Shown here: piece by piece, positions 3,919 to 54,415 of the stretch
How positions within the stretch are numbered: the first letter of the stretch is position 1
How the letters are laid out: the number at the start of each line of letters is the position of its first letter
Origin: Methanoculleus sp.
Lineage (GTDB): Archaea; Halobacteriota; Methanomicrobia; Methanomicrobiales; Methanoculleaceae
Length of the DNA: 55,395 bases
Reading direction: 5' to 3'
Assembly: GCA_030156625.1 (NCBI GenBank)
Contig: JASGMC010000002.1
Location: 1-55,395, forward strand
Notes under the pieces: model-generated
Database searches by the model: none
What the model was told of the DNA's origin: nothing
What the model saw: the letters and a program-made list of their open reading frames with translations, nothing else
Translations under genes and position numbers: made by a program

Positions 3919-4067
3919 CACGGATTCCCATTGAGTATCGCCACGGGGGGTGGGGACAAAGGGGAGTGCGAGCGCAGCGAGCATGAGAAACTCGAAGAGT
4001 TTCGAGGGGGGAGACCCCCCTCCCCTGCAACCCCTCCCCCAAACGCGATATCCCCTTGAAAACCGTG
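3919..4067 (+). repeat. Dispersed ~150-bp element, copy A
   Basis: The stretch from CACGGATTCC to the mirror-image AAAACCGTG is nearly identical to the reverse strand of 16982-17117 and related to 54255-54415. Its inner ends are imperfectly inverted (TATCGCC at 3936-3942, GCGATAT at 4045-4051). It contains a GAA-loop hairpin at 3985-4007, a second hairpin with a GCA loop and tandem G.A mismatches at 3967-3983, and a GGGGGGAGACCCCCC fold-back. It has no transposase and no credible gene. Several spurious reading frames cross it. It lies in the 425-bp gap between malQ and the 65-aa gene; nothing else is recognisable there. Confidence 0.85.
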
Positions 4068-4200
4068 CCAGATACAACCGAGGGGAATTGCAGGGTATGG
4101 TATGAAATGCGATACCCTCCCGCAAAGCCATCACCAGATCCGGAACCTCACAGAGTCGGGGTGTCCCGGCATCACCTGCCTATGAGGGCACCACCCCCGA

Positions 4201-4398
4201 TCAGTACCTGGCCGTCAGCACCTCGAGTTCCTCCCGGATGGTCCGCCGGACCATCTCCTCGATGGCATTGTAATCACGCTTCGCCTTCTCGTGCTTTGCG
4301 AGCATCTCTTCCATCTTCATGATCCCGAGGGAGAGGTTCTTCCCGTACTTGAGGGCGACCTCCAGCGCCTCCTCGTCGACCCGGACGACCCTGGACAT
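4201..4398 (-). CDS. 65-aa conserved-looking small protein
   Basis: 65 aa with the ATG at 4398 (MSRVVRVDEEALEVALKYGK). It is acidic and predicted all-helical; residues 30-60 are rich in Glu, Lys and Met with a heptad-like pattern (MKMEEMLAKHEKAKRDYN), suggesting a short coiled coil. The frame continues upstream for 23 codons, but a TATA-like AATTAAATT at 4421-4429 (reverse strand) sits about 27 nt before the chosen ATG, which would make the transcript leaderless and exclude the longer start. CTGTAACAA repeats flank that TATA box. The N-terminus is faintly like ribbon-helix-helix antitoxins, but I do not recognise the family. Confidence 0.6.
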   Translation of the reverse strand: MSRVVRVDEEALEVALKYGKNLSLGIMKMEEMLAKHEKAKRDYNAIEEMVRRTIREELEVLTARY

Positions 4399-4420
4399 AG
4401 GGTGATGTTTCCCGGGCAGG

Positions 4421-4509
4421 AATTTAATTGTTACAGATTTGTTACAGGCGGGCAAAAGTTGTTCCAAACCCGTAACAACAGCAGGAACAGCGTTACGATT
4501 GTGTTACAG
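4421..4509 (-). promoter_or_regulatory. TATA box with CTGTAACA iterons
   Basis: On the reverse strand, AATTAAATT (4421-4429) is preceded by CTGTAACAA at 4428-4436 and again at 4439-4447, exactly 11 bp apart. A third CTGTAACA is at 4502-4509, and related GTAAC cores lie at 4471-4476 (opposite orientation) and 4491-4497. One helical-turn spacing next to a TATA box is what a transcription-factor operator looks like. The controlled gene would be the 65-aa protein. gpmA ends at 4560 on the same strand, so the array is not simply coding. Confidence 0.55.
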
Positions 4510-4559
4510 GGAGAGAGATGAGAAGAGTTATCGGCGAAAGACCGGGGGGATAGCCCCGG

Positions 4560-5306
4560 CTACCCCGCACCCGCCTGCCGGGCCACGCCCTGTGCGGCCG
4601 CTGCGATCTCCTCCGGGTCGCCGAGGTAATAGTGCTCCACGGCCTTCAGGTCCCTGTCCAGCTTGTAGACGAGCGGGTAGCCGGTGGGGATGTTGAGGCC
4701 CGCGATCTCGTCGTCCGGAACATCGTCCAGGTGTTTGACCAGGGCCCGGAGGCTGTTGCCGTGGGCGGCGACCAGGACGGGTTTGCCCGCCGCAAGATCC
4801 CCGGCGATATGGCTCTCCCAGTAGGGGAGCACCCGCCCGAGCGTGTCGTGCAGGGACTCGGTCGCGGGAAGGCTCTCCGGGTCCAGGTCGGCGTAGCGGG
4901 GGTCGAACCGCGGGTGTCTCGGGTCGTCCCACGCGAGCGGCGGTGGCTGCACGCCGTATGCCCGGCGCCAGAGGTGCACCTGATCCGCGCCGTATTTCTC
5001 GGCGGTCTCCTTCTTGTTCAGACCCTGCAGGGCGCCGTAACTCTTCTCGTTCAGCCGCCACGACCGGTGCACCGGGATGTACATGAGATCGAGGTCGTCC
5101 ATGACCACCCAGAGCGTCCGGATGGCCCGCTTCAGGACGGAGGTGTAGGCGACGCCGAACGTATATCCGCCTTCCTTAAGGAGTTCCGCCGCCCGATGGG
5201 CTTCTTCCATACCGCGGGGCGAGAGGTCGACATCGGTCCAGCCCGTGAACCGGTTCTCCTTGTTCCAGAGGCTCTCGCCGTGCCTCAGCAGGATCAACGC
5301 TACCAT
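4560..5306 (-). CDS. gpmA: 2,3-bisphosphoglycerate-dependent phosphoglycerate mutase
   Basis: 248 aa, the normal length for the histidine-phosphatase-type cofactor-dependent mutase that interconverts 3- and 2-phosphoglycerate. Seen: [10 protein letters not shown] (Arg8-His9 catalytic pair), [17 protein letters not shown]-like [22 protein letters not shown] with the catalytic Glu, and [15 protein letters not shown] with the second catalytic His. The upstream extension of the frame is discarded because homology begins at [11 protein letters not shown] (ATG 5306). Most methanogens rely on the unrelated cofactor-independent ApgM, so a dPGM here is notable and may reflect transfer from bacteria. 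Confidence 0.95.
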
Positions 5307-5549
5307 TGCAATTCTACTCCCACATCCAGTATGATCCTCCTCCACGAATAAATGCCATGCACGTACCGGGGGGTAGTCCTGCAAGAGTGGCCGGAGGAGC
5401 CGCCCGTGCAGCCCCGGCGGGGACACGGGGCAACAGAAACCTCGATTCCCTCTAGAATCACCAGATTCGACGAACAGAGGATGGATGGGTTCGATTTTTT
5501 TCGTAGCCTACAATTCATTTATCTCTCATTCCCGCCCATATGCACCTGT

Positions 5550-7115
5550 ATGGCATCGAACAGAAGGAGGAACAGAAACTGCATCCTCGCGATGGCGTCA
5601 CTGCTCGTCATCGTTGTGGCGGCAGTCATCACCGCAGGATGTACGGCGGGTACGTCGACGCCCGGCGCGGTTGCCGGGCCCTCCTGGACTCTCGACTCGT
5701 ACCTCGCCGGGAACGGCACGCTTGTTCCGGTCCTGCCGGGAACGGAGATCTCCGCCCGGTTCGACGATGACGGAAAGGTCACCGGCTCCGCCGGGTGCAA
5801 CGGTTACGGTGGCGACTACAACCTCGACGGCACGACCCTCTCGATCTCCTCGCTTGCCCAGACGCAGAAACTCTGCACAGAGCCCGAAGGCATCATGGAG
5901 CAGGAAGCGGCGTTCATGGACCTCCTCGGCTCGGCGGCAGAATGCCGGATCGAGGATGACCGGCTGGAGATCATCGACGCTGCCGGCACGACGACGCTCG
6001 TCTTCGTGAAGGGACACGCGGCCGCGGCACTCGCCGCCGGGACGTCCTGGACGCTCGCGAGCCTCGCCGGGGAGGACGGCGCTCTGATACCGGTCCTTGA
6101 CGGCACAACCGTCACGGTGGCCTTCGACACCGACGGCAACGTCGGCGGGTCGGCCGGATGCAACCATTACAGCGCAGACTACACCGTGGACAGCGCGTCC
6201 CTCAGCATCGGGCCGGCCGTCAGGACCGAGATGTACTGCAGCGAACCGCCGGGCATCATGAAGCAGGAGGACCGCTACCTCGCGCTCCTCGCGAACGTCA
6301 CCTCCTACCGGGTGGAAGGAGGCGAACGGCTGGTCCTCGTGGACCGCGAGGGTGCCGACCTGCTGGTCTTTGAAGAGGTCGTCCGGACGCCCGACCTTCC
6401 GTTCGTCGGGACGGACTGGGTGCTCGAGTCCTACAGCACCGGTGGGGATGCAGTCTCTTCGCCCGTCAACGGTACGAAGATCACCGCGAATTTTGATGAC
6501 GGAAACGTCACCGGGAACGCCGGGTGCAACCACTACGGCGGCGAGTACAGCCTCGACGGCGCAAACCTCTCGATCTCCTCGCTCTACAGCACCCTGATGT
6601 ACTGCGAGACGCCGGGCGTCATGGAGCAGGAAGGGAGGTTCATGGGCCACCTCGCGAACGTCTCCTCCTACCGGGTGGAAGGCGATCGGCTGGTCCTCAC
6701 GGACGAGACGGGCACCGATCTCCTCTTCTTCGTGCAGGCTCAGGAGGTCCCGCCGGCACCGCTCACCGGGACGGAGTGGACGCTTGAGTCCTACAGCCCC
6801 GACGGGGAGACGGTCTCCTCGGTGATCATCGGGACCACGATCACGGCAGCCTTCGGCACTGACGGGAACGTCACCGGCAGCGCCGGATGCAACAGTTACG
6901 GGGCCGGCTACCGGGTCGACGGCGCGAAGATCACCATCGAGCCGCCCATCAGCACGAAGATGAACTGCAACAGGCCGGAAGGCATCATGGAGCAGGAGAA
7001 CAGGTACCTCAACCTGTTAACGTCGGTTGCAGGCTACCGCATCAACGGCGACCGGCTCGACCTCCTCGATAAGGCCGGAAAGACCCTGCTCTCTTTCAGC
7101 GCGGACCGGGCCTGA
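5550..7115 (+). CDS. Secreted lipoprotein with four META (HslJ-like) domains
   Basis: 521 aa. The N-terminus (about residues 1-31) is basic, then hydrophobic (LLVIVVAAVITAGC), with a lipobox-like AGC; the mature protein would be lipid-anchored outside the cell. Four tandem repeats of about 110 aa follow, each with W-T-L-x-S-Y, a GTxIxAxFDxDGxVTGSAGCN core, a Cys in the TxxxCxxPxGIMxQE segment and a closing DRLxLxDxxGxxLLxF strand. This is the META/HslJ fold, linked in bacteria to heat-inducible lipoproteins and protease inhibition. The paired Cys in each repeat could form a disulfide. The ATG at 5550 was chosen for its signal peptide. A paralogue follows. Confidence 0.85.
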   Translation: MASNRRRNRNCILAMASLLVIVVAAVITAGCTAGTSTPGAVAGPSWTLDSYLAGNGTLVPVLPGTEISARFDDDGKVTGSAGCNGYGGDYNLDGTTLSISSLAQTQKLCTEPEGIMEQEAAFMDLLGSAAECRIEDDRLEIIDAAGTTTLVFVKGHAAAALAAGTSWTLASLAGEDGALIPVLDGTTVTVAFDTDGNVGGSAGCNHYSADYTVDSASLSIGPAVRTEMYCSEPPGIMKQEDRYLALLANVTSYRVEGGERLVLVDREGADLLVFEEVVRTPDLPFVGTDWVLESYSTGGDAVSSPVNGTKITANFDDGNVTGNAGCNHYGGEYSLDGANLSISSLYSTLMYCETPGVMEQEGRFMGHLANVSSYRVEGDRLVLTDETGTDLLFFVQAQEVPPAPLTGTEWTLESYSPDGETVSSVIIGTTITAAFGTDGNVTGSAGCNSYGAGYRVDGAKITIEPPISTKMNCNRPEGIMEQENRYLNLLTSVAGYRINGDRLDLLDKAGKTLLSFSADRA

Positions 7116-7333
7116 TCTGTTCCCCGTTTCAGGCGGCCGAAGAGGCCGGTCACCGCCCGGTTTTCCATTTTACTGCACCCTGGGCCCAATATCTCCCGCC
7201 GGCGAAGGCTCGGGGCGACAGAGCCGGATCGACGCCGCTTGCATCCAGCCATCAGGGAGAGGGCGATCGAGAGAATTTCGGTGGAAATGGGTTGCTTTTT
7301 CTTCTTCCACCCCCTATTCTATCCTTGATAGAG

Positions 7334-8185: not shown

Positions 8186-8228
8186 GAAGAGCCCGTCGGG
8201 ACACCCTTTTTTTGCGGGCTCAAAAGAA

Positions 8229-8645: not shown

Positions 8646-8696
8646 GAGGAGTGATCATACCGGAAAAAGATATTCATTTCGAGCAGATGCAGCGGT

Positions 8697-10496: not shown

Positions 10497-10512
10497 CTTC
10501 GTGCCTCCTGGA

Positions 10513-11337: not shown

Positions 11338-11394
11338 GCGGTGCCTTCTATGTCGATAGGATTTATGCCTCCCCCGTAGGGGGAGGGGTTCTCC

Positions 11395-14421: not shown

Positions 14422-15660
14422 ATGGCAGCAAAGGGAGATATGGTATACGCCTGGACGACGAGCCCCGATATCGCCAAGGTGGCGGAATGCGGCGGCGCGG
14501 TGACCGGGCTTCTCAAGTATGCCCTTGAGAACAAGATCGTCGACGCCGTGCTGGCGGTCAAAAAGGGCGTGGACCTCTACGATGCGGTCCCCACGATCAT
14601 CACCGACCCCGCCGAGATCGGACAGACGGCAGGCTCGCTCCACTGCGGAACGCTCCTGCTCTCGAAACTGGTCAAGAAGTACCTCGATGGCGCCGGGGAT
14701 ATGCGCATCGGGGTGACGGTGAAGGGTTGCGACGCGATGGGCCTCTATGAGCTCGCGAAGCGCAACCAGGTCAACCTGGACAACCTCCTCATGATCGGCG
14801 TCAACTGCGGCGGGTCCGTCAGTCCGGTGACCGCCCGGAAGATGATCGCCGGGAAGTTCGGGGTCGACCCCGACTCGGTCGTCAAGGAAGAGATCGACAA
14901 GGGCCAGTTCATCATCATGACCGAGGACGGCCAGCACAAGGGCATCTCGATGGACGAACTCGAGGACGAAGGCTTCGGCCGCCGCAGCAACTGCCGCCGG
15001 TGCAAGATGAAAGTCCCGCGCCAGGCGGACCTCGCCTGCGGCAACTGGGGCGTCATCGGCGATAAGGCCGGCAAGGCCACCTTCGTCGAGGTCTGCTCCG
15101 AGAAGGGTGCGAACCTCCTCGATGCGGCCGTGAAGGCCGGGGCAGTCGCCACCGAACCCGCGAACCCGAAGGGTATCGAGATCCGCGGCAAGGTCGAGAA
15201 CGCGATGCTGAAACTCGGCGACAAGTGGCGGGCGCGCTACTTCGAGGGGCTCGGCGAGGGGAAGGAACGCCTGGAGAAGATCATGGAGGACACGTCCCGG
15301 TGCATCAAGTGCTACGCCTGCATCGAGAACTGCCCGATCTGCTACTGCGTCGACTGCAGCACGAAGAAGACCTACCTGGTGCCGCCGGGCGAGCTTCCTG
15401 TGCCGTTCATGTTCCACCTGATCAGGTTCGCGCACATCTCCGACTCCTGTGTCAACTGCGGCCAGTGCGAGGAGAACTGTCCGATGGAGATCGCGAACTC
15501 GCTCTACATGCACTCCCTGCAGACGGATATGGAGAGGATGTTCGGCCACACCCCGGGCGTGAACATGGACCTCCCGATCCTCGCGCTCGTCGAGGAGAAG
15601 GCGGAGCGGGAGCGGCTCTCCGCGACCGGCAGCGACCAGATCTTCAACGTGTTCGAGTAA
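14422..15660 (+). CDS. fdhB: Formate dehydrogenase beta subunit (F420-reducing)
   Basis: 412 aa, FrhB/FdhB family: it binds FAD and passes electrons from FdhA to coenzyme F420, and in methanogens can also feed heterodisulfide reductase. The FrhB-like core runs from residue 1 to about 280 (VAECGGAVTGLLKYAL, CGTLLLSKLVKKYL, GVNCGGSVSPVTARKM, NCRRCKMKVPRQADLACGNWG). Two ferredoxin-type [4Fe-4S] clusters follow: CIKCYACIENCPICYC and CVNCGQCEENCPMEIAN. The ATG directly follows the fdhA stop (TAAATG), so translation is probably coupled. Confidence 0.97.
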   Translation: MAAKGDMVYAWTTSPDIAKVAECGGAVTGLLKYALENKIVDAVLAVKKGVDLYDAVPTIITDPAEIGQTAGSLHCGTLLLSKLVKKYLDGAGDMRIGVTVKGCDAMGLYELAKRNQVNLDNLLMIGVNCGGSVSPVTARKMIAGKFGVDPDSVVKEEIDKGQFIIMTEDGQHKGISMDELEDEGFGRRSNCRRCKMKVPRQADLACGNWGVIGDKAGKATFVEVCSEKGANLLDAAVKAGAVATEPANPKGIEIRGKVENAMLKLGDKWRARYFEGLGEGKERLEKIMEDTSRCIKCYACIENCPICYCVDCSTKKTYLVPPGELPVPFMFHLIRFAHISDSCVNCGQCEENCPMEIANSLYMHSLQTDMERMFGHTPGVNMDLPILALVEEKAERERLSATGSDQIFNVFE

Positions 15661-15668: not shown

Positions 15669-15720
15669 TGCCCCGAAGGGGCAGGCGAAGTTCGAGAAAA
15701 TTGCGCAGCAATTTTCGAGG
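15669..15720 (+). repeat. Two tandem C-GNA-G hairpins
   Basis: TGCCCC-GAA-GGGGCA (15669-15683) and AAAATTGC-GCA-GCAATTTT (15697-15715). The second is bracketed by CGAG on both sides, which can pair with itself through tandem G.A mismatches. Both belong to the hairpin family also seen at 3967-4007, 53907-54061 and 54317-54339. Confidence 0.75.
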
Positions 15721-16826: not shown

Positions 16827-16981
16827 GCCAGGATGAGCGGGCGCTCCTGGGGACAAAAATGAATTGCAAAGGGTTATCGGGGGGCGACCTGCTGCAACCT
16901 TGCTTTTGATCGCGGCAGGAGAGGGGGTTCCATTTGGCCTACCCTTTGTGCTCGAATTTCGCTTGGCCACACATGCCCTTG

Positions 16982-17117
16982 CACGGATTTCGAGGGGATA
17001 TCGCGTTAGGGGAGGGGGGTCTCCCCCCTCGAAACTCTTCGAGTTTCTCATGCTCGCTGCGCTCGCACTCCCCTTTGTCCCCACCCCCCATGGCGATATT
17101 CCCACGGTCCACTGTAC
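16982..17117 (-). repeat. Dispersed ~150-bp element, copy B
   Basis: Reverse-strand copy of the element at 3919-4067, nearly identical across the centre, including the GAA-loop hairpin (17027-17049) and the G.A-mismatch hairpin. One end (GCACGGATTTCGAGGGGATA) matches an end of copy A; the other (CCATGGCGATATTCCCACGG) matches an end of copy C. The 446-bp gap between fdhD and the fused desulfurase gene contains nothing else I can name. Confidence 0.85.
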
Positions 17118-17272
17118 CAGGCTTTTCCCTCACTCAGACCGCACCGTTTGTCGTAACTGAGATGGCGGCACCCAAACTCCGGGCGTTCCGTCTGTTGCAT
17201 CCTGCGGACAGTCGCATACTTGCATCTTACGATGCTCGGACTCCGGTTCTAACCGGCCATCACAATTGCCAC

Positions 17273-32888: not shown

Positions 32889-33923
32889 TTGAAGGCAGTG
32901 GCCAGCGATAATGCGGATAAATTCCGGGAGGTGAAGGCGGCAGAGGGACTGTTCGATGATGAAGTGATTTACGTATCAGCGCAGGGTAACCGCATCGGGA
33001 TTGATGGAGGACGGATTGTCGTTACCACAGCGGATAAGCAGGAAACAGTGAGTTCTTTTCCAGTGGAGAAGGTGCGCACGGTCAATGTGTTTGGAAACAT
33101 ATCTGTATCCACTCCATTCCTTGCGAGTTGTGGGAAGACAGGAATGTCGGTGAACTACTTCACGTGGTACGGGAAGTACGTGGGGAGCTTCGTCCCGGAA
33201 CAGAATACGATTGCCGAGATCAGGCGCCGCCAGGCGTCGCTTGGTGGTGAGGAGACATTGGGGATTGCACGGGCGATCGTCGGTGCCAAGATCCGGAACT
33301 CGCGTACGCTGCTTTCCCGGAAAAAGGTGCGTCCCCCTGAACGACTGAAGATCCTCGAAGCGAATGTACATTCCGCTGGCGATATGAACCAACTCCGCGG
33401 AATAGAGGGCGAGGCAGCTGCTCTGTATTTTGGATGTCTTGACGAATGCCTCATTGAGGGATGGACGTTTGAGAAGAGAACGCGAAGGCCTCCACAGGAC
33501 CATATTAACTCGCTCCTGTCGCTGACGTATGCCATGATGCAGAACGAGGTGACGAGCGCTCTCCGACAGTACAACCTGGACCCATTCCTCGGCATAATGC
33601 ACACCGATCGGCATGGCAGGCCAGCGCTGACCCTTGATCTCATGGAGGAGTTCCGACCGATCTTCTGCGATGCTTTTGCTATCCGGTTGGTTAATCAACG
33701 CATCCTTGACCATGACGACTTTACAGCTGAAAACCGCCTGAAAGAGCATGCGCTCAAGAAGTATCTCTCTCAGTTCGACAGCTACATGAAAGAGACATTT
33801 ATGCACCCAAAATTCAAGTACACCGTAACGCGGCGGCGTGCAGTGGTTATGCAGGCGATCCTGCTCCGGAAAGCGATTGTCGGAGAGATGAAGCGGTATC
33901 ATCCGCTCGTATATATAAGGTGA
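32889..33923 (+). CDS. cas1: Cas1 integrase
   Basis: 344 aa. With Cas2 it inserts new spacers at the leader end of the array. The metal-binding residues are visible: Glu173 in LRGIEGEAAALYF, His238 in GIMHTDRHGRPAL and Glu253/Glu254 in LDLMEEFRP. The N-terminal beta-domain (IYVSAQGNRIGIDGGRIVVT) is normal. The TTG at 32889 is preceded by GGAGGAGGTTT at an ideal distance, so it is chosen over the in-frame GTG three codons later. The stop overlaps the cas2 region. Confidence 0.95.
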   Translation: MKAVASDNADKFREVKAAEGLFDDEVIYVSAQGNRIGIDGGRIVVTTADKQETVSSFPVEKVRTVNVFGNISVSTPFLASCGKTGMSVNYFTWYGKYVGSFVPEQNTIAEIRRRQASLGGEETLGIARAIVGAKIRNSRTLLSRKKVRPPERLKILEANVHSAGDMNQLRGIEGEAAALYFGCLDECLIEGWTFEKRTRRPPQDHINSLLSLTYAMMQNEVTSALRQYNLDPFLGIMHTDRHGRPALTLDLMEEFRPIFCDAFAIRLVNQRILDHDDFTAENRLKEHALKKYLSQFDSYMKETFMHPKFKYTVTRRRAVVMQAILLRKAIVGEMKRYHPLVYIR

Positions 33924-34362: not shown

Positions 34363-37300
34363 GTCACAGCGCATCAGAAAACCCGATAGGGATTGAAACG
34401 AGGAGAACATACGGATCGGCATTGCAGCAGATTCTCCGTCACAGCGCATCAGAAAACCCGATAGGGATTGAAACTAATCCCCTTCAGGGTCATGGTGGCT
34501 CCTGGTATGTCACAGCGCATCAGAAAACCCGATAGGGATTGAAACATCATACTCGAGGCCGCGCCAGATGACCGTTTCCGTCACAGCGCATCAGAAAACC
34601 CGATAGGGATTGAAACATAAACGACGCCCCGCTCCTCGAGATCCCGTGGGCGTCACAGCGCATCAGAAAACCCGATAGGGATTGAAACGTTGTTCTTGTC
34701 GGGGTAGTCGCTCCGGACCTCCCGTCACAGCGCATCAGAAAACCCGATAGGGATTGAAACAGGACTCCAAGAGCCCGCGGTTCAGCCCGGTCTACGGGTC
34801 ACAGCGCATCAGAAAACCCGATAGGGATTGAAACCTCTACGACTACGATCAGACCCGGGACCTCGTCCCGGTCACAGCGCATCAGAAAACCCGATAGGGA
34901 TTGAAACCCGGGGTGGACGTCGATCGTGACGTTCGGGGCGGTGTCACAGCGCATCAGAAAACCCGATAGGGATTGAAACTTACCGACGATCGCCTGATCG
35001 CTCTCGACGATATCGGTCACAGCGCATCAGAAAACCCGATAGGGATTGAAACCCCGGCGGGCAAGACCACAGAGTCCCGCCTCCTTTCCGAGTCACAGCG
35101 CATCAGAAAACCCGATAGGGATTGAAACTTCGGCGTCCGGCCATCAGAGGACCTGGGATACCTCGTCACAGCGCATCAGAAAACCCGATAGGGATTGAAA
35201 CCCGGCGCTCGGAAGTTATGAGGACTGGCGCCGCGTCGTCACAGCGCATCAGAAAACCCGATAGGGATTGAAACACATCTCCGAGTGGTTCCTCGTATGT
35301 TTATGATGGTCACAGCGCATCAGAAAACCCGATAGGGATTGAAACAGCTCTACAAGTTCTTGAGTCAGAACCGCGACTTCGGTCACAGCGCATCAGAAAA
35401 CCCGATAGGGATTGAAACCGATCTCCTTATGACTCCTCCGATCGTTTTCGTCGTGTCACAGCGCATCAGAAAACCCGATAGGGATTGAAACGGCGGGGAA
35501 GCGGGTCGCGGTGATCCTGCTGGCCCCGCGTCACAGCGCATCAGAAAACCCGATAGGGATTGAAACTCGGGAGCCCGCGGCCTTGAGTGCCCGGACTACG
35601 ATGTCACAGCGCATCAGAAAACCCGATAGGGATTGAAACTAGGGCTCCGTTTCCGCGCCCCACGATACTGTGCCGTCACAGCGCATCAGAAAACCCGATA
35701 GGGATTGAAACGGCCGACCGATGGCTCGACCGCACCCGGCGCAAGGCCGTCACAGCGCATCAGAAAACCCGATAGGGATTGAAACCAGGTGATCCGGGCG
35801 CTCTTCTCCTCTCCGAGTGAGTCACAGCGCATCAGAAAACCCGATAGGGATTGAAACCCGCCGAAGACGTGCTCGCAGGCGTGCGGCGGGGAGTCACAGC
35901 GCATCAGAAAACCCGATAGGGATTGAAACAACTCAAAAACGCAGATATACGGTAATCGGAAGGTCACAGCGCATCAGAAAACCCGATAGGGATTGAAACA
36001 GCCGGATCGATGCCCGGGCGGCAGACGGCGACGCGTCACAGCGCATCAGAAAACCCGATAGGGATTGAAACTTCGACGCCCGCGCCGTGCTGCCCGCCCG
36101 CGAGTATCGGTCACAGCGCATCAGAAAACCCGATAGGGATTGAAACTTTACGAGGTGCGCGTAGGCGGCGAGCATCTGCGACGGTCACAGCGCATCAGAA
36201 AACCCGATAGGGATTGAAACAAAACCCATGACTGCAACCATGATGGCCGGCACCTACGTCACAGCGCATCAGAAAACCCGATAGGGATTGAAACAGGGTG
36301 AGGGGGGCCATTACTGCACCTCCAGTGTCGTCACAGCGCATCAGAAAACCCGATAGGGATTGAAACTGATCGTGGCCGGGATCTCCATGGGGGTTTCGGT
36401 GGGTCACAGCGCATCAGAAAACCCGATAGGGATTGAAACCGGAACCCCGCCCACTCTGCGGCGAGGTCGAGCCCGCGTCACAGCGCATCAGAAAACCCGA
36501 TAGGGATTGAAACATGGCAGATATGGAGCCGGGCGGTGGAATCTGCCGCGTCACAGCGCATCAGAAAACCCGATAGGGATTGAAACCCCGCTGGAGCAGG
36601 TCGCCCCTGACTGGAAACCCCCCGTCACAGCGCATCAGAAAACCCGATAGGGATTGAAACCGCTTTCCGGGCGTCGAACGATCCGATCACGGTAAGTCAC
36701 AGCGCATCAGAAAACCCGATAGGGATTGAAACAGCAGCCATGACCCGCCTGATCCGCATCGAACTCTGCGACGTCACAGCGCATCAGAAAACCCGATAGG
36801 GATTGAAACTCGGCACGGGGCGGGAAGAAGACATCATCGCGTCGAAGTCACAGCGCATCAGAAAACCCGATAGGGATTGAAACTTCCGCCGAAACCGAGA
36901 GGACGCCCTGGCCGTGCTCCGGTCACAGCGCATCAGAAAACCCGATAGGGATTGAAACCCGCAGTCAGCTCTTCCAACTCTTCGGCGTAGTCCTCGTCAC
37001 AGCGCATCAGAAAACCCGATAGGGATTGAAACCAGGGGAACTCCTGCGTCGCCGGTGGCGGGGTCGGGTCACAGCGCATCAGAAAACCCGATAGGGATTG
37101 AAACCGGCACCAGATGCGCCACGATATCGTGCAGCGGACAGTCACAGCGCATCAGAAAACCCGATAGGGATTGAAACCGAGAAAGAGGAGTTTGACCGCT
37201 GGATGTCGTGCGAGTCACAGCGCATCAGAAAACCCGATAGGGATTGAAACAACTCGTTCGATACCGCGGAGAGGTCCAGCGAGTTGTCACAGCGCATCAG

Positions 37301-40300
37301 AAAACCCGATAGGGATTGAAACAAGAATAACCGGGCGGTCGGCGGAGCATCGTCGATCGTCACAGCGCATCAGAAAACCCGATAGGGATTGAAACCTGGT
37401 TTATCCCGGAATTATTCTCGGGAGTTGAAAAGGTCACAGCGCATCAGAAAACCCGATAGGGATTGAAACTGCTCGGCGACGTTGTGCGAGGCGATCACCG
37501 GGATGGTCACAGCGCATCAGAAAACCCGATAGGGATTGAAACAGGAGGCAGGCGCATGACCAACCCCTACATCCCTGCGTCACAGCGCATCAGAAAACCC
37601 GATAGGGATTGAAACGCGACGGTGTCGACGGTGCGGAGCACGCGGTTCAAGTCACAGCGCATCAGAAAACCCGATAGGGATTGAAACGCGACGCAGCACG
37701 CGGCCGGATCATCGCCCGCAAGGTCACAGCGCATCAGAAAACCCGATAGGGATTGAAACCGGTACTGGGTGCACCTCCGGTGGAAGACGGATGAGTCACA
37801 GCGCATCAGAAAACCCGATAGGGATTGAAACACCGGGCCAGGATCTCCCTGGCTTCCGTCGGCGTCGTCACAGCGCATCAGAAAACCCGATAGGGATTGA
37901 AACCTCAAGAACGTCCCGCTCGGGGACCTCATCCCTTATGTCACAGCGCATCAGAAAACCCGATAGGGATTGAAACTTTGTGAAGAGCGGGCGCGGCCGG
38001 TACTACTATATCGTCACAGCGCATCAGAAAACCCGATAGGGATTGAAACCCGACGGACGGGTATTGTATCCGGTACATCCCGGACGGTCACAGCGCATCA
38101 GAAAACCCGATAGGGATTGAAACGCAAAATCCGTCTTCGCACCGATCGTCTTGATCTCGTCACAGCGCATCAGAAAACCCGATAGGGATTGAAACCAGGG
38201 ACCTTCGCGGGCTCCGGGGTCCCGACATCCGTCACAGCGCATCAGAAAACCCGATAGGGATTGAAACTCAGCGCGCCGTTTATGGTGCGCCACTTGACCA
38301 GGAAGTCACAGCGCATCAGAAAACCCGATAGGGATTGAAACACGTCGATCTTCGAGGCGTCTGCCGGCAGGTCCAGGGTCACAGCGCATCAGAAAACCCG
38401 ATAGGGATTGAAACTGTATATTGCGAAATTAATCGTGATTATCCTACTAGGTCACAGCGCATCAGAAAACCCGATAGGGATTGAAACTTTGTTACACAAA
38501 AGAAAGGGTTTAATAAACTGTAAGTCACAGCGCATCAGAAAACCCGATAGGGATTGAAACGTTGGGTCGAGCGGATCGCAGGGCTTCTGGACGGCGTCAC
38601 AGCGCATCAGAAAACCCGATAGGGATTGAAACTCCCCGCCGACGTGGGTGGTCGACGTCGATGCGGCCGTCACAGCGCATCAGAAAACCCGATAGGGATT
38701 GAAACCAGTCCCGGGCGCACATGTCCCGGACGAGTTGGATGTCACAGCGCATCAGAAAACCCGATAGGGATTGAAACAACTCCTTGCGGGATTGTGGCGG
38801 GATTCCACGAGATGTCACAGCGCATCAGAAAACCCGATAGGGATTGAAACCTCTTCCGGCTCCGGCGGCACCCGCACCATCGATTACGTCACAGCGCATC
38901 AGAAAACCCGATAGGGATTGAAACCGAATCCAAACGATGCTGGAGTTATGGAGATCGTCCAGTCACAGCGCATCAGAAAACCCGATAGGGATTGAAACCC
39001 CCTATGAGCGGCAAGCCCCGGAACCTGATAGACAAGTCACAGCGCATCAGAAAACCCGATAGGGATTGAAACTCAACCGTCGCCCGCTCCCCAGCCTGGA
39101 TCGCCACGTCACAGCGCATCAGAAAACCCGATAGGGATTGAAACTGGATATACCTCGCTCATTCATAACGGCATCTAACAGTCACAGCGCATCAGAAAAC
39201 CCGATAGGGATTGAAACGTGATGACATGATTGTTAGATATCCCCGAGTAACACAAGTCACAGCGCATCAGAAAACCCGATAGGGATTGAAACGTGTCGAG
39301 GGTCTCCCCGGTCGCCTCATCTACAATGGTCACAGCGCATCAGAAAACCCGATAGGGATTGAAACCGAGAGAGGGGGGGGGACCAGGTCACCCGGGTCAA
39401 GTCACAGCGCATCAGAAAACCCGATAGGGATTGAAACAATAACTCCCCGAGTAGGGAACGTATTTCTGCCATCTCGTCACAGCGCATCAGAAAACCCGAT
39501 AGGGATTGAAACCGAACCGTGGAGTATCATCGGAAACATTCCATTTGTCACAGCGCATCAGAAAACCCGATAGGGATTGAAACTCTCGGCAAGGAGTATG
39601 TCGACTGCCCCCGGACGAAGTCACAGCGCATCAGAAAACCCGATAGGGATTGAAACGTAGTAGTCTCGTTGTTAAGAGGTGCATGATGACGTTAGTCACA
39701 GCGCATCAGAAAACCCGATAGGGATTGAAACGGGCGGTGCTTGGCGTCGTTATCGGACTCATCCCGGTCTGTCACAGCGCATCAGAAAACCCGATAGGGA
39801 TTGAAACTGGAAATAAGGCACCTTGTTCCGTCGTCACGTTTAAAGTCACAGCGCATCAGAAAACCCGATAGGGATTGAAACTAGGAGTATGCCGTGTAGT
39901 AGGCGTACAGCTCGTCGGTCACAGCGCATCAGAAAACCCGATAGGGATTGAAACATGATGGATGATTGGTAGCCATATTTTCCCGGGGCGGCGTCACAGC
40001 GCATCAGAAAACCCGATAGGGATTGAAACACGCGAATAACGTAAGTCACGTAATTTTTCGAATACCGTCACAGCGCATCAGAAAACCCGATAGGGATTGA
40101 AACGAGTGTTTCGGAAAGTGGTGGGGCGAGCAGCAGGGGTCACAGCGCATCAGAAAACCCGATAGGGATTGAAACCTCTCCGATAGCGACACATCAGACG
40201 CCAGCGGCAGTCACAGCGCATCAGAAAACCCGATAGGGATTGAAACAACCCGTCCTACGCCGGGCTGGTTTTTCCGTTTCCGTCACAGCGCATCAGAAAA

Positions 40301-42004
40301 CCCGATAGGGATTGAAACTTGCCCGGGTCGGAGCACGACCTTGTGCTCTGCGGAGGTCACAGCGCATCAGAAAACCCGATAGGGATTGAAACGGTAAACG
40401 ATAGGAGGATCGGCCGCCGCTCATGCGTCACAGCGCATCAGAAAACCCGATAGGGATTGAAACATATAGATTCGAATTCCAACTATATAGAGGCTATTGT
40501 TGTCACAGCGCATCAGAAAACCCGATAGGGATTGAAACTGATCTCGCGGAGAATATCGAGATCATCGAATTCGAAGTCACAGCGCATCAGAAAACCCGAT
40601 AGGGATTGAAACCTGATCGTTTTCTCCATATGAGCGATCCGATCTTCACCGTCACAGCGCATCAGAAAACCCGATAGGGATTGAAACATAGTATGAGGAT
40701 CCGACTTATTGACATTGACAGCGTCACAGCGCATCAGAAAACCCGATAGGGATTGAAACTAGGTCAATGCCCCACCTCCGGCCGGTCGCGGATGTGTCAC
40801 AGCGCATCAGAAAACCCGATAGGGATTGAAACCATTGAACCGAGAACCCGACCACGCCGACGCAGGGTCACAGCGCATCAGAAAACCCGATAGGGATTGA
40901 AACTACGGTAATGTCGTAGTACTGCCGGAGCCCTATGTGTCACAGCGCATCAGAAAACCCGATAGGGATTGAAACCGGTATCCGGTTCACAAACATGATG
41001 ATGCTCCTGGTCACAGCGCATCAGAAAACCCGATAGGGATTGAAACTCATTATCGTGCGCTCCATCAGACACCGTAAAAATGTCACAGCGCATCAGAAAA
41101 CCCGATAGGGATTGAAACACCTACCGATTTGAACGGAGGAGATTACGTTGAGTCGCGTCACAGCGCATCAGAAAACCCGATAGGGATTGAAACATCATCA
41201 GGCGCGGGGTCTCGTCGCCGTCATCGCGGTCACAGCGCATCAGAAAACCCGATAGGGATTGAAACCCGGCACGGGCAGTCTGGTTCGCGAACGGGAACAA
41301 TGTCACAGCGCATCAGAAAACCCGATAGGGATTGAAACGGTGGATTGGTGCAGCGCCCGGACCACCTGCGCTTTGTAGTCACAGCGCATCAGAAAACCCG
41401 ATAGGGATTGAAACACGACGAGTGATCGCCGGGCCAACATCCCCGCTTCAGTCACAGCGCATCAGAAAACCCGATAGGGATTGAAACGAGCGAGTGGTCG
41501 CTCTCCATCGGGTCCGCGCTCGAGTCACAGCGCATCAGAAAACCCGATAGGGATTGAAACCCGGCGGAACTCCCGCAGCGGCTCCCGAACAGACCCCGTC
41601 ACAGCGCATCAGAAAACCCGATAGGGATTGAAACGAGGGGTTCGCGTTGAACCCGCCGTCCAGGAAGTCGGGTCACAGCGCATCAGAAAACCCGATAGGG
41701 ATTGAAACGAGGGATCATTCCAGGCAATCCCAGCAGCCATCAGGCGGTCACAGCGCATCAGAAAACCCGATAGGGATTGAAACTTATTGTAGTGGGTGCA
41801 ATCAAGGAACATACTCTTGTCACAGCGCATCAGAAAACCCGATAGGGATTGAAACTCGGTTAACGTCATTTATTAAACCGAAGTTAGGCGGGAGTCACAG
41901 CGCATCAGAAAACCCGATAGGGATTGAAACGGGAGCAGGAGCGTCCCGATCTCCACCCCGAGTTCCGGTCACAGCGCATCAGAAAACCCGATAGGGATTG
42001 AAAC
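34363..42004 (+). CRISPR. Type I-D CRISPR array, 105 repeats and 104 spacers
   Basis: By reading each unit I count 105 copies of a 37-nt repeat that begins GTCACAGCGCATC and ends GATAGGGATTGAAAC. Spacers are 33-40 nt, mostly 35-37. Every repeat I read appears identical, including the last one at 41968-42004, with no decayed terminal repeat. The ATTGAAAC end is the standard 5' handle after Cas6 cutting, so crRNAs are made from the + strand. Many short frames on the reverse strand contain FQSLSGFLMRCD; they are translations of the repeat, not genes. Spacers are mostly GC-rich; AT-rich ones are commoner from about 38400 onwards. No cas gene follows; 89 bp of trailer separate the array from nth. 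Confidence 0.98.
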
Positions 42005-46692: not shown

Positions 46693-46701
46693 CCGCCCGT
46701 T

Positions 46702-51412: not shown

Positions 51413-52077
51413 GGCATCCGCCCGGCCGCCTTCCAGTAGTCGTATTCGTGGTGCCAGCGGTCTTTGTTCGCCGTGATCAGGGCCCGCATCCGCTCAAGCA
51501 TCGCGGCGTGGAACTCCTCCTGCTCCGGGTATGTCTCTTTGTTCTCGATGGCTTTTGCGAGCTTCCTGCCGAGTTCGTAGGCTCTCCCTTCCGCAGGCAC
51601 GATCGTCTCCGGGTCTCCCCCGAGGACGATGCCGACGCCGCCCACGGTGTTCGCACCCAGGGTCCGGAGAACCCCGTTGAGGTAGGCCACGACCTCATCC
51701 GCTCCGGACCCGCCCGCCGTGGAGACGGCGCACCCGTACTTCCCGATGAACATCTGGCAGTGGATGGCGTCCGCCATGCGGTCGAGCATGGTCTTTATCT
51801 GGGCGGTGACCGAGTCGATGTAGTTGGGCGACCCGAGGACGATCCCGTCGCTTTCAAGCATCTTCTGGTACAACCCGGCAAAGTCGTCTTTCTTGACGCA
51901 CTCTCCACGTTCGCAGCAGACCAGGCACCCGTTACAGTACTCGATCTGGATCTTGCAGACATCCACGAGTTCTACATCGGCCCCGGCACTCCCCGCCCCG
52001 TCGAGGACGGCCTGAACAAGCCGGAGCGTCTGGCTCCTTGAGGCGCGGGGGCTTCCGTTAATCCCAAGTACTTTCAT
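51409..52077 (-). CDS. Iron-sulfur flavoprotein (Isf-like flavodoxin)
   Basis: 222 aa. N-terminal flavodoxin/FMN-reductase fold: KVLGINGSPRASRSQTLRLVQ (phosphate loop), SDGIVLGSPNYIDSV near 80, and AVSTAGGSGADEVV near 120. A compact cluster motif, C-NG-C-LV-C-CERGE-C (residues about 48-60), is the signature of methanogen Isf, which binds one [4Fe-4S] and FMN and has been linked to O2/H2O2 detoxification. Its four-Cys spacing (C-x2-C-x2-C-x5-C) is within the family range. It could hand electrons to or from ferredoxin. Confidence 0.87.
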   Translation of the reverse strand: MKVLGINGSPRASRSQTLRLVQAVLDGAGSAGADVELVDVCKIQIEYCNGCLVCCERGECVKKDDFAGLYQKMLESDGIVLGSPNYIDSVTAQIKTMLDRMADAIHCQMFIGKYGCAVSTAGGSGADEVVAYLNGVLRTLGANTVGGVGIVLGGDPETIVPAEGRAYELGRKLAKAIENKETYPEQEEFHAAMLERMRALITANKDRWHHEYDYWKAAGRMP

Positions 52078-52135
52078 ATTTCTTCCTCGTTTGTAATGTT
52101 CAGGAGTCCGTATCCGGATACGCTCACCCGCAGCC

Positions 52136-52597
52136 TTACGGGATGTCGTGCGTGACGGCGATCTCGGCGTGATACTGCCGGCCGCAGTCGCCGGGGAACG
52201 GATCGATGGTGAATATCTTCGTTTCGCCCGCCTGGAACCGGGGAGCGAAAACGGTCTCGGTCGCCCGGATCATATTGCTTTCGTCGTCGACCAGCATGAA
52301 CCGGATGACGACGTTTCTTGCGGGCGCATCGCCGGTGTTGGTCACGGTTCCGGTCACAATCCAGTAACAGGAGCCGTCGGTGCGCAAATGCTTCTCCGGT
52401 GCGGTAACGCTGGCAGAGAACGACGGCTGCGGCCCGGCAGGCGAGTAGGTGGTGTGAGCAGCCGGTGTCACCTCCGGCGTCGGGGTGGGCGTTTCCGACA
52501 CCCCGGAGGTTCCCGTGCAGCCTGCCGTGGCAACAGCGCCGACGAGGCAGCCGAGGAGCAGAAGGAGCACAAGGCTCTTTCCAGAGACATCCTGCAT
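52136..52597 (-). CDS. Secreted lipoprotein, FxLYD-like
   Basis: 153 aa. Signal peptide LVLLLLLGCLVGAVATAGC with a lipobox-like AGC at about residue 26, then a Thr/Pro-rich spacer (TPTPTPEVTPAA) typical of archaeal surface proteins, then a beta-rich domain (WIVTGTVTNTGDAPARNVVIRF...FAPRFQAGETKIFTI) that fits the FxLYD or NEW3-like interaction folds. No enzymatic motif. About 59 bp before the flavoprotein gene, same strand. Confidence 0.75.
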   Translation of the reverse strand: MQDVSGKSLVLLLLLGCLVGAVATAGCTGTSGVSETPTPTPEVTPAAHTTYSPAGPQPSFSASVTAPEKHLRTDGSCYWIVTGTVTNTGDAPARNVVIRFMLVDDESNMIRATETVFAPRFQAGETKIFTIDPFPGDCGRQYHAEIAVTHDIP

Positions 52598-52753
52598 GAT
52601 GGTTCATCGACCGGAGAGGTATATAACGGATACGCAAGCGCATCCGGCAGGTACGACGAGCCTCCGACTGCCGACCCGCCGCCCGGGCAGGACCCGGGGA
52701 ACGATTTATATGCTCTCCGGATAAGGAGCCAGCCGAAACCGGGAGGAGTGCCG

Positions 52754-53242
52754 ATGAGCAGGGAGAGCGTAGAAACCGTCGGGACCGTGGAGGTCTTCAA
52801 CGCCGTAACGGGAGAGAGGGAAGAGGTCGAGAGGGTCGTCAAATCCGACGAGGAGTGGCGGCGCCAGCTGACGCCGGAACAGTTCTCCGTTGCCCGGAAG
52901 GCAGGCACGGAGCCGGCCTTCACCGGGAAGTACTGGGACTGCAAGGAGGACGGCCTGTACGTCTGCGTCTGTTGCGGCAACCACCTCTTCTCCTCGAAGA
53001 CGAAGTTTGAGTCGGGGACCGGCTGGCCGAGTTTCTGGGAACCGGTCTCCGACCAGAACATCAGGACGGATCTCGACAACCGGTTCCTCATGAGCCGGAT
53101 TGAGGTGCTCTGCAGGCGGTGCGACGCCCACCTGGGCCACGTCTTCGACGACGGGCCGCCGCCGACCCACAAGCGCTACTGCCTGAACTCGGCGTCGCTC
53201 CGGTTCGTGCGGCAGAAGGATCTCCCCGGGCGGCACGAATAA
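52754..53242 (+). CDS. msrB: Peptide-methionine (R)-S-oxide reductase
   Basis: 162 aa. MsrB repairs R-methionine sulfoxide. Catalytic Cys in RYCLNSASLRF (near residue 143); zinc Cys pairs CVCCG near 75 and CRRCDAH near 120; FESGTGWPSFWEP and LGHVFDDGPPPTHKRYC are family-defining. The frame opens far upstream, but the ATG at 52754 has GGGAGGAG at 52741-52748. An N-terminal 35-residue extension precedes the domain. Confidence 0.95.
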   Translation: MSRESVETVGTVEVFNAVTGEREEVERVVKSDEEWRRQLTPEQFSVARKAGTEPAFTGKYWDCKEDGLYVCVCCGNHLFSSKTKFESGTGWPSFWEPVSDQNIRTDLDNRFLMSRIEVLCRRCDAHLGHVFDDGPPPTHKRYCLNSASLRFVRQKDLPGRHE

Positions 53243-53272
53243 TTATCCTTTTGCGGCGCCGACCTCTGATCA

Positions 53273-54019
53273 GTGACCGACCATTCATCCGCCTGGGACG
53301 AGGACTACCGGAGGCGGGGAAACCTCTGGGGCGGAGCGCCGGCGCCGCTCCCGGACCTCCCCGCCGATGCCGCCGTCCTCGAGATCGGCTGCGGGAACGG
53401 CAAGACCCTCGGGGCACTCGTCCGGCGGTTCCCGTGCGTGACCGCGGTCGACATCTCTCCCCGTGCCGTCGCCCTTGCCCGGCGGCACCCGACAACGGCG
53501 GCGGCCTCTCTCGCCGTTGCCGACGCCCGGCGCCTGCCGTTTCGAGATGCGGCGTTCGATGCGATCATCCTGGTCCACATCCTCGGCCACCTGCCCCTCC
53601 CGGACCGGAAGGCCGTGGCATCCGAGGTCTTCCGGGTGCTCAGGCCGGAAGGGACGGCTTTCTTTCGTGGGTTCTCCGTCGAGGATATGCGTGCCGGGAA
53701 GGGAACGGAGACGGAGCCGCAGACCTTCCGGAGGGGCGAGGGCATCGTCACCCACTACTTCACCGAGGCCGAGACTGCGGAACTCTTCGCACCGCTCGTC
53801 CCGGTCTCGGTCCGGACGCACCGCTGGCGGATGCGGGTCAGGGGCAGGGACCTCCCCCGGGCCGAGGTGGAGGGGGTTTTTCGGATGCGACGGGCCGAAG
53901 TGCGATGTTCCGGAGGAACGGAGCGTGAGAAACCCGAAGGGTTTCGAGGGCCGGAGTTTGAGAAAACGCGAAGCGTTTTCGAGGGGCGACGCTCCGGAGT
54001 GCGACCGAAGGGAGCTTGA
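53273..54019 (+). CDS. Class I SAM-dependent methyltransferase with repeat-derived tail
   Basis: 248 aa, GTG start. Rossmann motif I is VLEIGCGNGKTLGAL near residue 36, then TAVDISPRAVALARR, ADARRLPFRDAAFDAIILVHILGHL and LRPEGTAFF. Substrate unknown. The last 40-45 residues (from FRMRRAEVRC) are read through the C-GNA-G hairpin cluster at 53907-53984 and are not conserved-looking, so the native C-terminus has probably been replaced or extended by the inserted repeats. Confidence 0.8.
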   Translation: MTDHSSAWDEDYRRRGNLWGGAPAPLPDLPADAAVLEIGCGNGKTLGALVRRFPCVTAVDISPRAVALARRHPTTAAASLAVADARRLPFRDAAFDAIILVHILGHLPLPDRKAVASEVFRVLRPEGTAFFRGFSVEDMRAGKGTETEPQTFRRGEGIVTHYFTEAETAELFAPLVPVSVRTHRWRMRVRGRDLPRAEVEGVFRMRRAEVRCSGGTEREKPEGFRGPEFEKTRSVFEGRRSGVRPKGA

Positions 54020-54061
54020 GCACCGGAGGTGCGAAAAGCGGAGTTCAAGCACCGCAGGTGC
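53907..54061 (+). repeat. Cluster of C-GNA-G hairpins
   Basis: In order: GTTCC-GGA-GGAAC (53907-53919); AAACCC-GAA-GGGTTT (53930-53944); AAAACGC-GAA-GCGTTTT (53962-53979); GCACC-GGA-GGTGC (54020-54032); GCACC-GCA-GGTGC (54049-54061). Most are flanked by GA on the left and GA on the right that can form tandem G.A mismatches (CGAT/GGAG, TGAG/CGAG, TTGA/GAAA). Stem letters differ while pairing is kept. Confidence 0.8.
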
Positions 54062-54254
54062 GAGGGAGGGATAGGGATAGTGAGCCTGGGACGGCTGAAT
54101 TCTGCTCGCCGGGTTTGCATAATGTGAACCTTCGGTGCTTGAACATCGGCTCTTTGGATTGTCGTTCTTCGGAGCGTCGCTCTTCGACCCAATAGAGCGT
54201 CGCCATTGGGAAGGTACAGAGGTAAATAGGGCCCGCTTTTCTTCTACAGTCCCA

Positions 54255-54415
54255 GTACAGTGGACCGTGGGAATATCGCGTCTGGGGGAGAGCGACTGGC
54301 CGTAGGGCAGGAACTCGAGAAGAACGAAGTTCTTCGAGGGGTTTCAGGGGAGGGGGGAGACCCCCCTCCCCTGTCCCCACCCCCATGGCGATATCCACTG
54401 GAAAGCCGTGTACTG
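54255..54415 (+). repeat. Dispersed ~150-bp element, copy C
   Basis: Ends run GTACAGTGGACCGTGGGAAT and, on the other side, GCGATATCCACTGGAAAGCC followed by GTGTACTGT. It shares the GGGGAGGGGGGAGACCCCCC core and the CGAG-flanked GAA hairpin (54317-54339, arms AAGAAC/GTTCTT) with copies A and B, but part of the core is rearranged. The surrounding 54020-54848 holds hairpins, this element and no gene I would defend. Confidence 0.75.

What the first reader, a model, noticed from the sequence alone, without database searches (positions are those of the whole stretch)
3967..54339. A family of covarying hairpins with C-GNA-G loops and tandem G.A flanks
At least ten hairpins at 3967-4007, 15669-15715, 17027-17049 (reverse), 53907-54061 and 54317-54339 all close with C-G around GAA, GCA or GGA. 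Their stems have different letters but perfect pairing (AAACTC, AAAATTGC, AAACCC, AAAACGC, AAGAAC, GCACC, TGCCCC arms), and most are bracketed by GA/GA able to form tandem sheared G.A pairs. d(GNA) triloops and tandem G.A are known to make unusually stable DNA hairpins. The pattern implies selection on shape, at DNA or RNA level, beyond ordinary terminators.
Basis: partly seen in the sequence, partly recalled or inferred. Interest (0 to 1): 0.8.

Follow-up and report, generated by a model that had tools for sequence, protein, structure and literature searches.

The report
Tiny nested mobile double-hairpin DNA elements
The hairpins are copies of a roughly 45-letter DNA element, most likely mobile, found in many copies in the methane-making archaeon Methanoculleus; its shape is kept while its letters change, copies lie inside other copies, and no enzyme that moves it was found.

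Summary
The hairpins are real and far above chance, but they are not independent C-GNA-G hairpins. They are parts of a dispersed two-hairpin unit of about 45 bp: NNCGA-[hairpin A]-GAGNNYGA-[hairpin B]-GA. Stem letters vary with compensation (15 of 16 pairs show double changes; 95.6% of cells paired against 72.5% shuffled). 25 of 35 same-genus genomes searched have 32 or more copies (capped counts); related units occur in some other Methanomicrobiales. Units are over-represented between convergent genes. M. marisnigri JR1 and M. sediminis S3Fa differ in presence of whole units and in array length; one difference lies in single-copy sequence. Flanks show short direct repeats, typically GAAG or CGAAG, on one strand only (CGAAG 31, CTTCG 0 of 139), and 7 of 139 units sit inside another hairpin's loop. 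The window array 53886-54064 reads as two nested pairs. Part of the C-GNA-G / GA...GA pattern is thus target and junction sequence. No Rfam family matches. Y1 transposase is absent from 20 of 21 copy-rich genomes tested and RVT_1 from 23 of 25, so the moving enzyme is unknown. Closest kinds: mitochondrial double-hairpin elements, cyanobacterial SDRs (recalled), REPINs. New variant of a known kind.

The parts
3919..4067 (+). MITE-like host element, imperfect terminal inverted repeats CACGG...TATCGC / GCGATA...CCGTG, holding a unit
   Evidence: pattern scan; sequence
3964..4011 (+). two-hairpin unit; hairpin A is short (GC-GCA-GC), hairpin B 3987-4003 GAAACTC-GAA-GAGTTTC
   Evidence: covariance model R1, 44.1 bits
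15657..15724 (+). two-hairpin unit directly after the stop codon (15658-15660) of the FdhB-like gene; hairpins 15669-15683 and 15696-15716
   Evidence: model R1 23.8 bits; hairpins; orthologous site compared
17023..17070 (-). two-hairpin unit, same type as 3964-4011; hairpin B 17031-17047
   Evidence: model R1 44.1 bits
53886..53983 (+). unit U1 (host): TGCGA 53886-53890, hairpin A arms 53891-53896 and 53948-53953 (5 of 6 pairs), hairpin B 53962-53980
   Evidence: sequence; boundaries read by eye from the consensus
53901..53945 (+). unit U2 lying in the loop of U1 hairpin A; flanks CGAAG on the left, CGAGG on the right
   Evidence: model R1 73.3 bits at 53898-53953; flanks
53985..54064 (+). 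unit U3 (host): hairpin A arms CGCT 53990-53993 / AGCG 54037-54040, hairpin B 54049-54061
   Evidence: sequence; boundaries read by eye from the consensus
54000..54032 (+). unit U4 lying in the loop of U3 hairpin A (short hairpin A CC-GAA-GG, hairpin B GCACC-GGA-GGTGC)
   Evidence: model R1 32.0 bits at 53997-54040
54288..54343 (+). two-hairpin unit inside a MITE-like host (about 54250-54420); hairpin B 54319-54335
   Evidence: model R1 52.7 bits
14422..15660 (+). F420 hydrogenase/dehydrogenase beta-subunit gene (FdhB/FrhB) bordering the unit
   Evidence: Pfam PF04432 and PF04422
53273..54019 (+). methyltransferase ORF whose predicted C-terminal end runs into the array
   Evidence: Pfam PF13649/PF08241, residues 35-131; ORF list

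Best explanation
The hairpins are copies of a non-autonomous mobile element of Methanoculleus, about 40-55 bp long, made of two hairpins. Shown: the two-hairpin architecture with compensatory stem changes; high copy number; mostly intergenic dispersion; presence/absence and array-length differences between two close species; orientation-specific flanking by GAAG/CGAAG-type sites with short direct repeats; copies lying inside the hairpin loops of other copies. Inferred: an enzyme encoded elsewhere recognises the folded element by shape (GNA-capped hairpins with tandem G.A steps at the base, on single-stranded or cruciform DNA), joins it in one orientation at GA-rich sites with a staggered cut of about 3-5 bp, and so often lands in the C-GNA-G loops of existing copies. 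Recognition by shape frees the stem letters to drift as long as pairing holds. Tandem arrays then grow and shrink by unequal exchange or slippage.
For: Raw unit scan 10/9/18 in samples of three genomes against 0/0/1 in reversed sequence; a few of the raw units look like chance and arrays are counted in two phases. Model R1: 203 matches at E<=0.01 in 1.98 Mb of four genomes. Covariation on A3 (best 150 of the 203, 127 distinct rows, fitted to the model): 95.6% of cells paired against 72.5% shuffled, 393 double-change cells against 125, slid controls 35-53% paired; the pair beyond the G.A step of hairpin A changes between GC (74) and AU (35). Copy number: of 35 same-genus genomes, own included, 25 have 32 or more hits at E<=0.1, 1 has 13 and 9 have 1-7. 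M. sediminis C1 against 780 kb of M. marisnigri (38 blocks covering 477 of 565 kb of C1): 4 unit-sized presence/absence differences (45, 43, 51, 46 bp) and 3 array-length changes, among other indels. The one at G046 272208 has both 60-bp flanks matching only itself and its M. marisnigri ortholog in the sequences held, where they are contiguous. Flank repeats: identical 5-mers in 33 of 139 units against 9.0 shuffled; 18 of 95 against 5.7 without arrays; 9 of 74 against 2.4 also without CGCGAAG contexts. Orientation: left CGAAG 31, CTTCG 0 of 139. Nesting with 4 or more further pairs: 7 of 139 against about 0.4 shuffled. Orthologous site after the fdhB-like gene in 21 relatives, by eye: near-whole units in 8, parts in 6, none in 5, one unclear, one masked, with different stems and nestings.
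Against: No enzyme was identified. Gain or loss is not fixed for any of the four unit-sized differences. For two (G046 289800, G020 696868) similar composites occur elsewhere, and three of the four lie in repeats, so gene conversion or recombination could explain them. 106 of 139 units show no identical 5-mers, and repeat length varies: the two inserts in hairpin A right arms (G020 332875, G046 289800) fit 3 bp better than 5. The unit filter required GA after hairpin B and CGA before hairpin A, which biases the flanks. The 7 nested cases fall into few hairpin types, so independent events are fewer. U1 and U3 in the window are read by eye. 30 of 105 scanned units fell in predicted genes.
Confidence: 0.77

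Rival explanations
1. REP/REPIN-type element moved by a Y1 HUH (IS200/IS605-like, RAYT) transposase, whose hairpin and tetranucleotide recognition would resemble this one. (A rival about the enzyme; it overlaps with the best explanation.)
For: Hairpins next to a conserved GGAG-like tag, doublets, intergenic location and clustering resemble REPs and REPINs (passages of PMC3733652, and PMC3116915).
Against: PF01797 is absent from 20 of 21 copy-rich genomes tested, including M. marisnigri and M. sediminis (present in G010), and present in 5 of 7 copy-poor ones tested. Units are direct A-B pairs, not inverted doublets, and direct repeats occur at junctions. A diverged Y1 enzyme, or one lost after spreading, is not excluded.
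Confidence: 0.1
2. Host-functional RNA or DNA structure (3' end stabiliser, terminator, nucleoid site) kept by selection on shape.
For: Units favour convergent gene pairs: 19 of 170 convergent intergenic regions hold one, 18 of 615 same-direction and 6 of 281 divergent (three genome samples, two of them close relatives). Pairing is strongly conserved.
Against: No orientation bias in same-direction gene pairs (14 with, 13 against). 1-7 copies only in 9 of 35 same-genus genomes. Content of orthologous sites differs between close species. Avoidance of promoters would explain the location equally well.
Confidence: 0.1
3. No transposition: units amplify and spread only by recombination, gene conversion and slippage among repeats (including MITE-like hosts).
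For: Three array-length changes; composites of MITE or unit plus unit are dispersed; many units lie in repeats.
Against: The difference at G046 272208 lies in sequence that is single-copy in the sequences held; it could still be a loss in M. marisnigri. Oriented flanks and junction repeats; nested copies in more than one hairpin type.
Confidence: 0.12
4. Spread by reverse transcription of a small RNA, as suggested for Allomyces double-hairpin elements and cyanobacterial SDRs (recalled). (A rival about the enzyme; it overlaps with the best explanation.)
For: Single-strand shape conservation fits; an RNA intermediate was suggested for Allomyces (PMC2800124 passages).
Against: PF00078 reverse transcriptase is absent from 23 of 25 copy-rich genomes (present in G012 and G048).
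Confidence: 0.06

Closest known systems
Double-hairpin elements (DHE) and repetitive hairpin elements of fungal and sponge mitochondria
   Same: Short hairpins, single or double, dispersed, with different frequencies in close species, tandem forms (PMC2800124 passages; stem variability and nesting of DHEs are recalled)
   Different: Mitochondrial; Allomyces elements said to lack flanking duplications. Here archaeal chromosome, oriented GAAG/CGAAG sites and short repeats
SDR elements of Nostoc (Elhai 2008, recalled; the paper is not held)
   Same: Compensatory changes, nesting in own copies, location in minitransposons and short tandem repeats (all recalled)
   Different: 21-27 nt and cyanobacterial (recalled); here about 45 bp with two hairpins, CGAAG-type target, Methanomicrobiales
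REP / REPIN elements and RAYT transposases
   Same: Short extragenic palindromes, doublets, clusters, insertion into or beside existing copies, inferred mobility (PMC3116915 passages)
   Different: Two inverted, conserved REP sequences and a Y1 transposase partner. Here stems vary, units are direct A-B, and Y1 is absent from most carriers tested
CGTC-tagged palindromic repeats (PMC3733652)
   Same: REP-like, no dedicated transposase known (passages)
   Different: Found in five bacterial phyla, CGTC tag, stems of 8-9 bp; that tag is not a constant feature here
Yeast mitochondrial GC clusters such as GC42 (PMC4478555)
   Same: 42-nt palindromic mobile element with putative short target duplication, merger and shuffling (passages)
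   Different: Mitochondrial, AG target; relation not tested

Membership tests
REP/REPIN (RAYT-moved) | Y1 tyrosine transposase (RAYT) in the genome | tested here: not met
   PF01797 absent in 20 of 21 copy-rich genomes tested
REP/REPIN (RAYT-moved) | Inverted doublets of one conserved palindrome | tested here: not met
   Units are direct A-B pairs with variable stems
Double-hairpin elements | Two adjacent hairpins, short, dispersed, variable stems with pairing kept | tested here: met
Double-hairpin elements | Presence/absence between close species | tested here: met
   4 unit-sized differences over 477 kb of M. sediminis C1; gain or loss unresolved
Double-hairpin elements | Common descent with mitochondrial elements | not tested
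   elements this short carry too little sequence
MITE | Terminal inverted repeats of a DDE transposon | tested here: not met
   By eye from the tallies the unit ends, NNCGA... and ...GGTG(C), are not inverted repeats. The larger host at 3919-4067 does look like a MITE
Retro-element | Reverse transcriptase (RVT_1) available in carriers | tested here: not met
   PF00078 absent in 23 of 25 copy-rich genomes
Known structured RNA | Match to an Rfam 15 family | tested here: not met
   window, gathering: only tRNA and CRISPR repeats; 53850-54400 at E<=5: 29 matches, all far below their gathering scores
Cas1-integrated DNA (spacer or casposon) | Cas1 with complete active site available in all carriers | tested here: inconclusive
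   Cas1 in 19 of 19 genomes tested; the only Cas1 match of M. marisnigri and a counterpart in M. sediminis lack the first glutamate in a 3-protein alignment (residue roles recalled and). Others not checked

The most novel reading that the evidence does not exclude
The units are moved by a dedicated, undescribed integrase that reads DNA shape, neither a Y1 HUH transposase nor a reverse-transcriptase system, and that uses GNA-capped hairpin loops as targets. The Cas1 paralogue of M. marisnigri and its relatives, probably the Methanomicrobiales-only 'Cas1-solo group 1' of unknown function, is one candidate: it would place 40-50 bp hairpin DNA into CGNAG sites.
Probability: 0.22. Interest if true: 0.85.

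Novelty: new variant of a known kind. Interest (0 to 1): 0.62.

Why it matters
It would be an archaeal counterpart of the double-hairpin and SDR elements, in methanogens with type-strain genomes (M. marisnigri JR1, M. sediminis S3Fa), with many copies, close species pairs and naturally nested copies that order insertions in time. Because Y1 transposase and RVT_1 reverse transcriptase are missing from most carriers tested, it makes the question of how elements of about 45 bp move directly testable. I found no description of it: the searches listed none that names such units, and the passages seen of the M. marisnigri genome paper and of the RepRanger survey do not mention them. Those are listings and passages only, and most subscription papers are not in that library.

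Tried and rejected
Ordinary terminators: rejected as the main reading; by eye the flanks show no consistent T run, units occur in both orientations and inside other units. The terminator scanner was not run. Kink-turn (L7Ae) reading of the tandem G.A steps: considered by eye only, the 3-nt bulge with a paired C-stem is not apparent. CGTC REP class: tag not constant. Rfam: no match. Viral carriage: one exact pattern found nothing in viral contigs. CRISPR adaptation as source: M. marisnigri is reported with 0 CRISPR repeats (PMC3035220 table) yet is rich in units. DDE_Tnp_1 as necessary enzyme: absent in copy-rich G005 and G048, present in the other 17 of 19 tested. Polarising the differences with other held sequences did not settle gain against loss, except that the 36-bp unit remnant in a coding ORF (G020 390896) is also in G003, so its absence in M. 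sediminis is probably a loss. Synteny of G000, G003 and G020 samples: by the strict scanner 3 of 165 neighbour pairs hold units in one genome only, but in one of the three (G003 gene 318) the other genome does hold weaker units. Matches outside Methanomicrobiales (5 genomes with one match each) look like chance; I looked at two of them, L288 and L291. One of 100 named pattern hits lies in a 'Lokiarchaeota' bin (L215), probably a binning error; not tested. DNA folding of 53881-54066: z -2.9 against shuffles; its minimum-energy fold does not show the nested reading cleanly.
Full report
Observation. C-GNA-G triloop hairpins of 6 bp or more number 8 in the masked window against a shuffled mean of 0.68, and in intergenic DNA of stretches of two relatives 19 and 46 against 0.73 and 0.83. 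The GA/GA brackets are also enriched (44 against 13.7 expected).

Source. The window is contig C1 of a 2.16 Mb, 82% complete genome in 130 contigs. G046 contig C1 has the length of M. sediminis S3Fa contig 1 (565,325 bp) and G020 that of M. marisnigri JR1 (2,478,101 bp, PMC3035220 table).

Anatomy. A chain scan found that the hairpins come in ordered pairs: NNCGA-[hairpin A, starts C ends G]-GAG-NNY-GA-[hairpin B, starts G ends C]-GA. Reversed sequence gives 0, 0 and 1 units against 10, 9 and 18; the raw 18 counts one array in both phases and a few raw units look like chance. A covariance model from 11 units (A1) finds 203 copies at E<=0.01 in 1.98 Mb from four genomes. On the 127 distinct rows of the best 150 of these (A3), 95.6% of pair cells are standard pairs against 72.5% after shuffling, with 393 double changes against 125; slid structures fall to 35-53%. 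A3 is fitted to the model, so counts lean towards the structure. The pair outside the G.A step of hairpin A changes between G-C (74) and A-U (35), so the helix continues across a tandem G.A step; hairpin B shows a weaker version (77.8% paired outside the step).

Spread. Over whole genomes, with 93 candidates scored in each, 25 of 35 same-genus genomes (own included) have 32 or more matches at E<=0.1, one has 13 and nine have 1-7; of two genomes of other genera of the family, G051 has 91 and G052 has 2; three of the 24 genomes of the order outside the family have 12-33 and the rest 0-4. In 294 genomes of the phylum, 26 match at E<=1e-4, 21 of them within the order; the other 5 have one match each. 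Copies outside the genus that I printed keep the plan more or less, several with a shorter hairpin A.

Place. In 600 kb of G003, 34 of 37 model hits lie wholly between genes predicted by my own simple caller. In three genome samples (two of them close relatives, so not independent) 19 of 170 convergent intergenic regions hold a unit against 18 of 615 same-direction and 6 of 281 divergent ones; orientation in same-direction regions is 14 with and 13 against. In that of 105 scanned units fell in predicted genes, 23 of them in G020; some may be spurious ORFs called over arrays, which I did not check.

Movement. The region after the window's fdhB-like gene was compared in 21 relatives with the ortholog (86-98% protein identity): by eye 8 have near-whole units, 6 have parts, 5 have none (L106, L107, L109, L110, L115), L114 is unclear and L098 is masked; number, stems and nesting differ. 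M. sediminis C1 was aligned to 780 kb of M. marisnigri (38 blocks covering 477 of its 565 kb). Four unit-sized presence/absence differences have clean flanks (G020 332875, 45 bp; G046 272208, 43 bp; G046 289800, 51 bp; G020 696868, 46 bp), and three array lengths differ, besides other indels. At G046 272208 both 60-bp flanks match only that site and its ortholog in M. marisnigri, where they are contiguous, while the 43 bp resemble units elsewhere. Against this: the other three sites lie in repeats, and composites like those at G046 289800 and G020 696868 occur elsewhere, so gene conversion is possible there; gain or loss is not decided for any of the four.

Target. In 139 distinct units the five bases before NNCGA and the five starting at the last C of hairpin B are identical in 33, against 9.0 for shuffled partners; excluding arrays 18 of 95 against 5.7; excluding also CGCGAAG repeat contexts 9 of 74 against 2.4. 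The left site is CGAAG 31 times and CTTCG never, so the relation to the site is orientation-specific. Seven of 139 units sit with four or more further pairs around them, i.e. inside another hairpin's loop, against about 0.4 in shuffles; they fall into few hairpin types. Repeat length is not constant; GAAG (4 bp) and CGAAG (5 bp) cannot be told apart when the unit itself ends in C, and the two inserts in hairpin A right arms (G020 332875, G046 289800) fit 3 bp.

Window array. By the same reading, 53886-54064 is two nested pairs: U2 (53901-53945) inside the loop of U1 hairpin A, and U4 (54000-54032) inside U3 hairpin A (arms of U1 5 of 6 paired, of U3 4 bp). This is my reading by eye, not a separate statistical test, and the minimum-energy DNA fold of the stretch does not show it cleanly.

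Enzyme. The Y1 transposase family PF01797 is absent from 20 of 21 copy-rich genomes tested (present in G010) and present in 5 of 7 copy-poor ones tested. RVT_1 is absent from 23 of 25 copy-rich genomes. DDE_Tnp_1 is absent from two copy-rich genomes and present in 17 of 19 tested. Cas1 is in 19 of 19 tested, copy-rich and copy-poor alike, including M. marisnigri, which is reported without CRISPR repeats. The Cas1 of M. marisnigri and its M. sediminis counterpart align to the window's CRISPR Cas1 with the histidine and the later acidic residues kept but the first glutamate replaced (which residues are catalytic follows and recall). A casposon paper states that Cas1-solo group 1 is found only in Methanomicrobiales and lacks the full active site (PMC4046053 passages). 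That these proteins are group 1 is my inference, and the missing residue speaks against a simple integrase role. Other transposase families were not tested.

Known kinds. The closest are double-hairpin elements, cyanobacterial SDRs (recalled), REPINs, CGTC repeats and yeast GC clusters (passages). The thing works like a double-hairpin element; common descent cannot be tested at this length. It fails the enzyme and geometry tests of REPINs.

Noticed in passing
34363-42004, minus strand (with Cas1 at 32889-33923 +): A large CRISPR array: 105 repeats matching Rfam CRISPR-DR60, next to a Cas1 gene.
   Followed up: no
3919-4067, and similar ends about 16950-17120 (-) and 54250-54420: A MITE-like element of about 150 bp with imperfect ends CACGG...TATCGC that hosts units; only the first copy fits my pattern in the window.
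   Followed up: partly
53273-54019: A methyltransferase ORF runs into the hairpin array, so its last residues would be encoded by units and its stop lies in unit U4.
   Followed up: partly
L128 around 10896 (G020 390896) and L090 18676-18721: A 36-bp in-frame unit remnant inside a 636-aa ORF (looks like a molybdopterin-biosynthesis type protein, recalled) in two species, missing in M. sediminis.
   Followed up: partly
L165 7158-8366, L175 10398-11573: A Cas1 paralogue with the first catalytic glutamate replaced, in M. marisnigri and M. sediminis.
   Followed up: partly
left and right flanks in L133, L153, L173, L178: Units often lie in degenerate tandem repeats of the type CGCGAAGNN, which recalls the tandem heptamers around SDR elements (recalled).
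   Followed up: no
L061 1212-1463, L120 2438-3431, L124 7425-7700: Satellite-like arrays of whole units in M. marisnigri, periods about 49, 94 and 46 bp.
   Followed up: no
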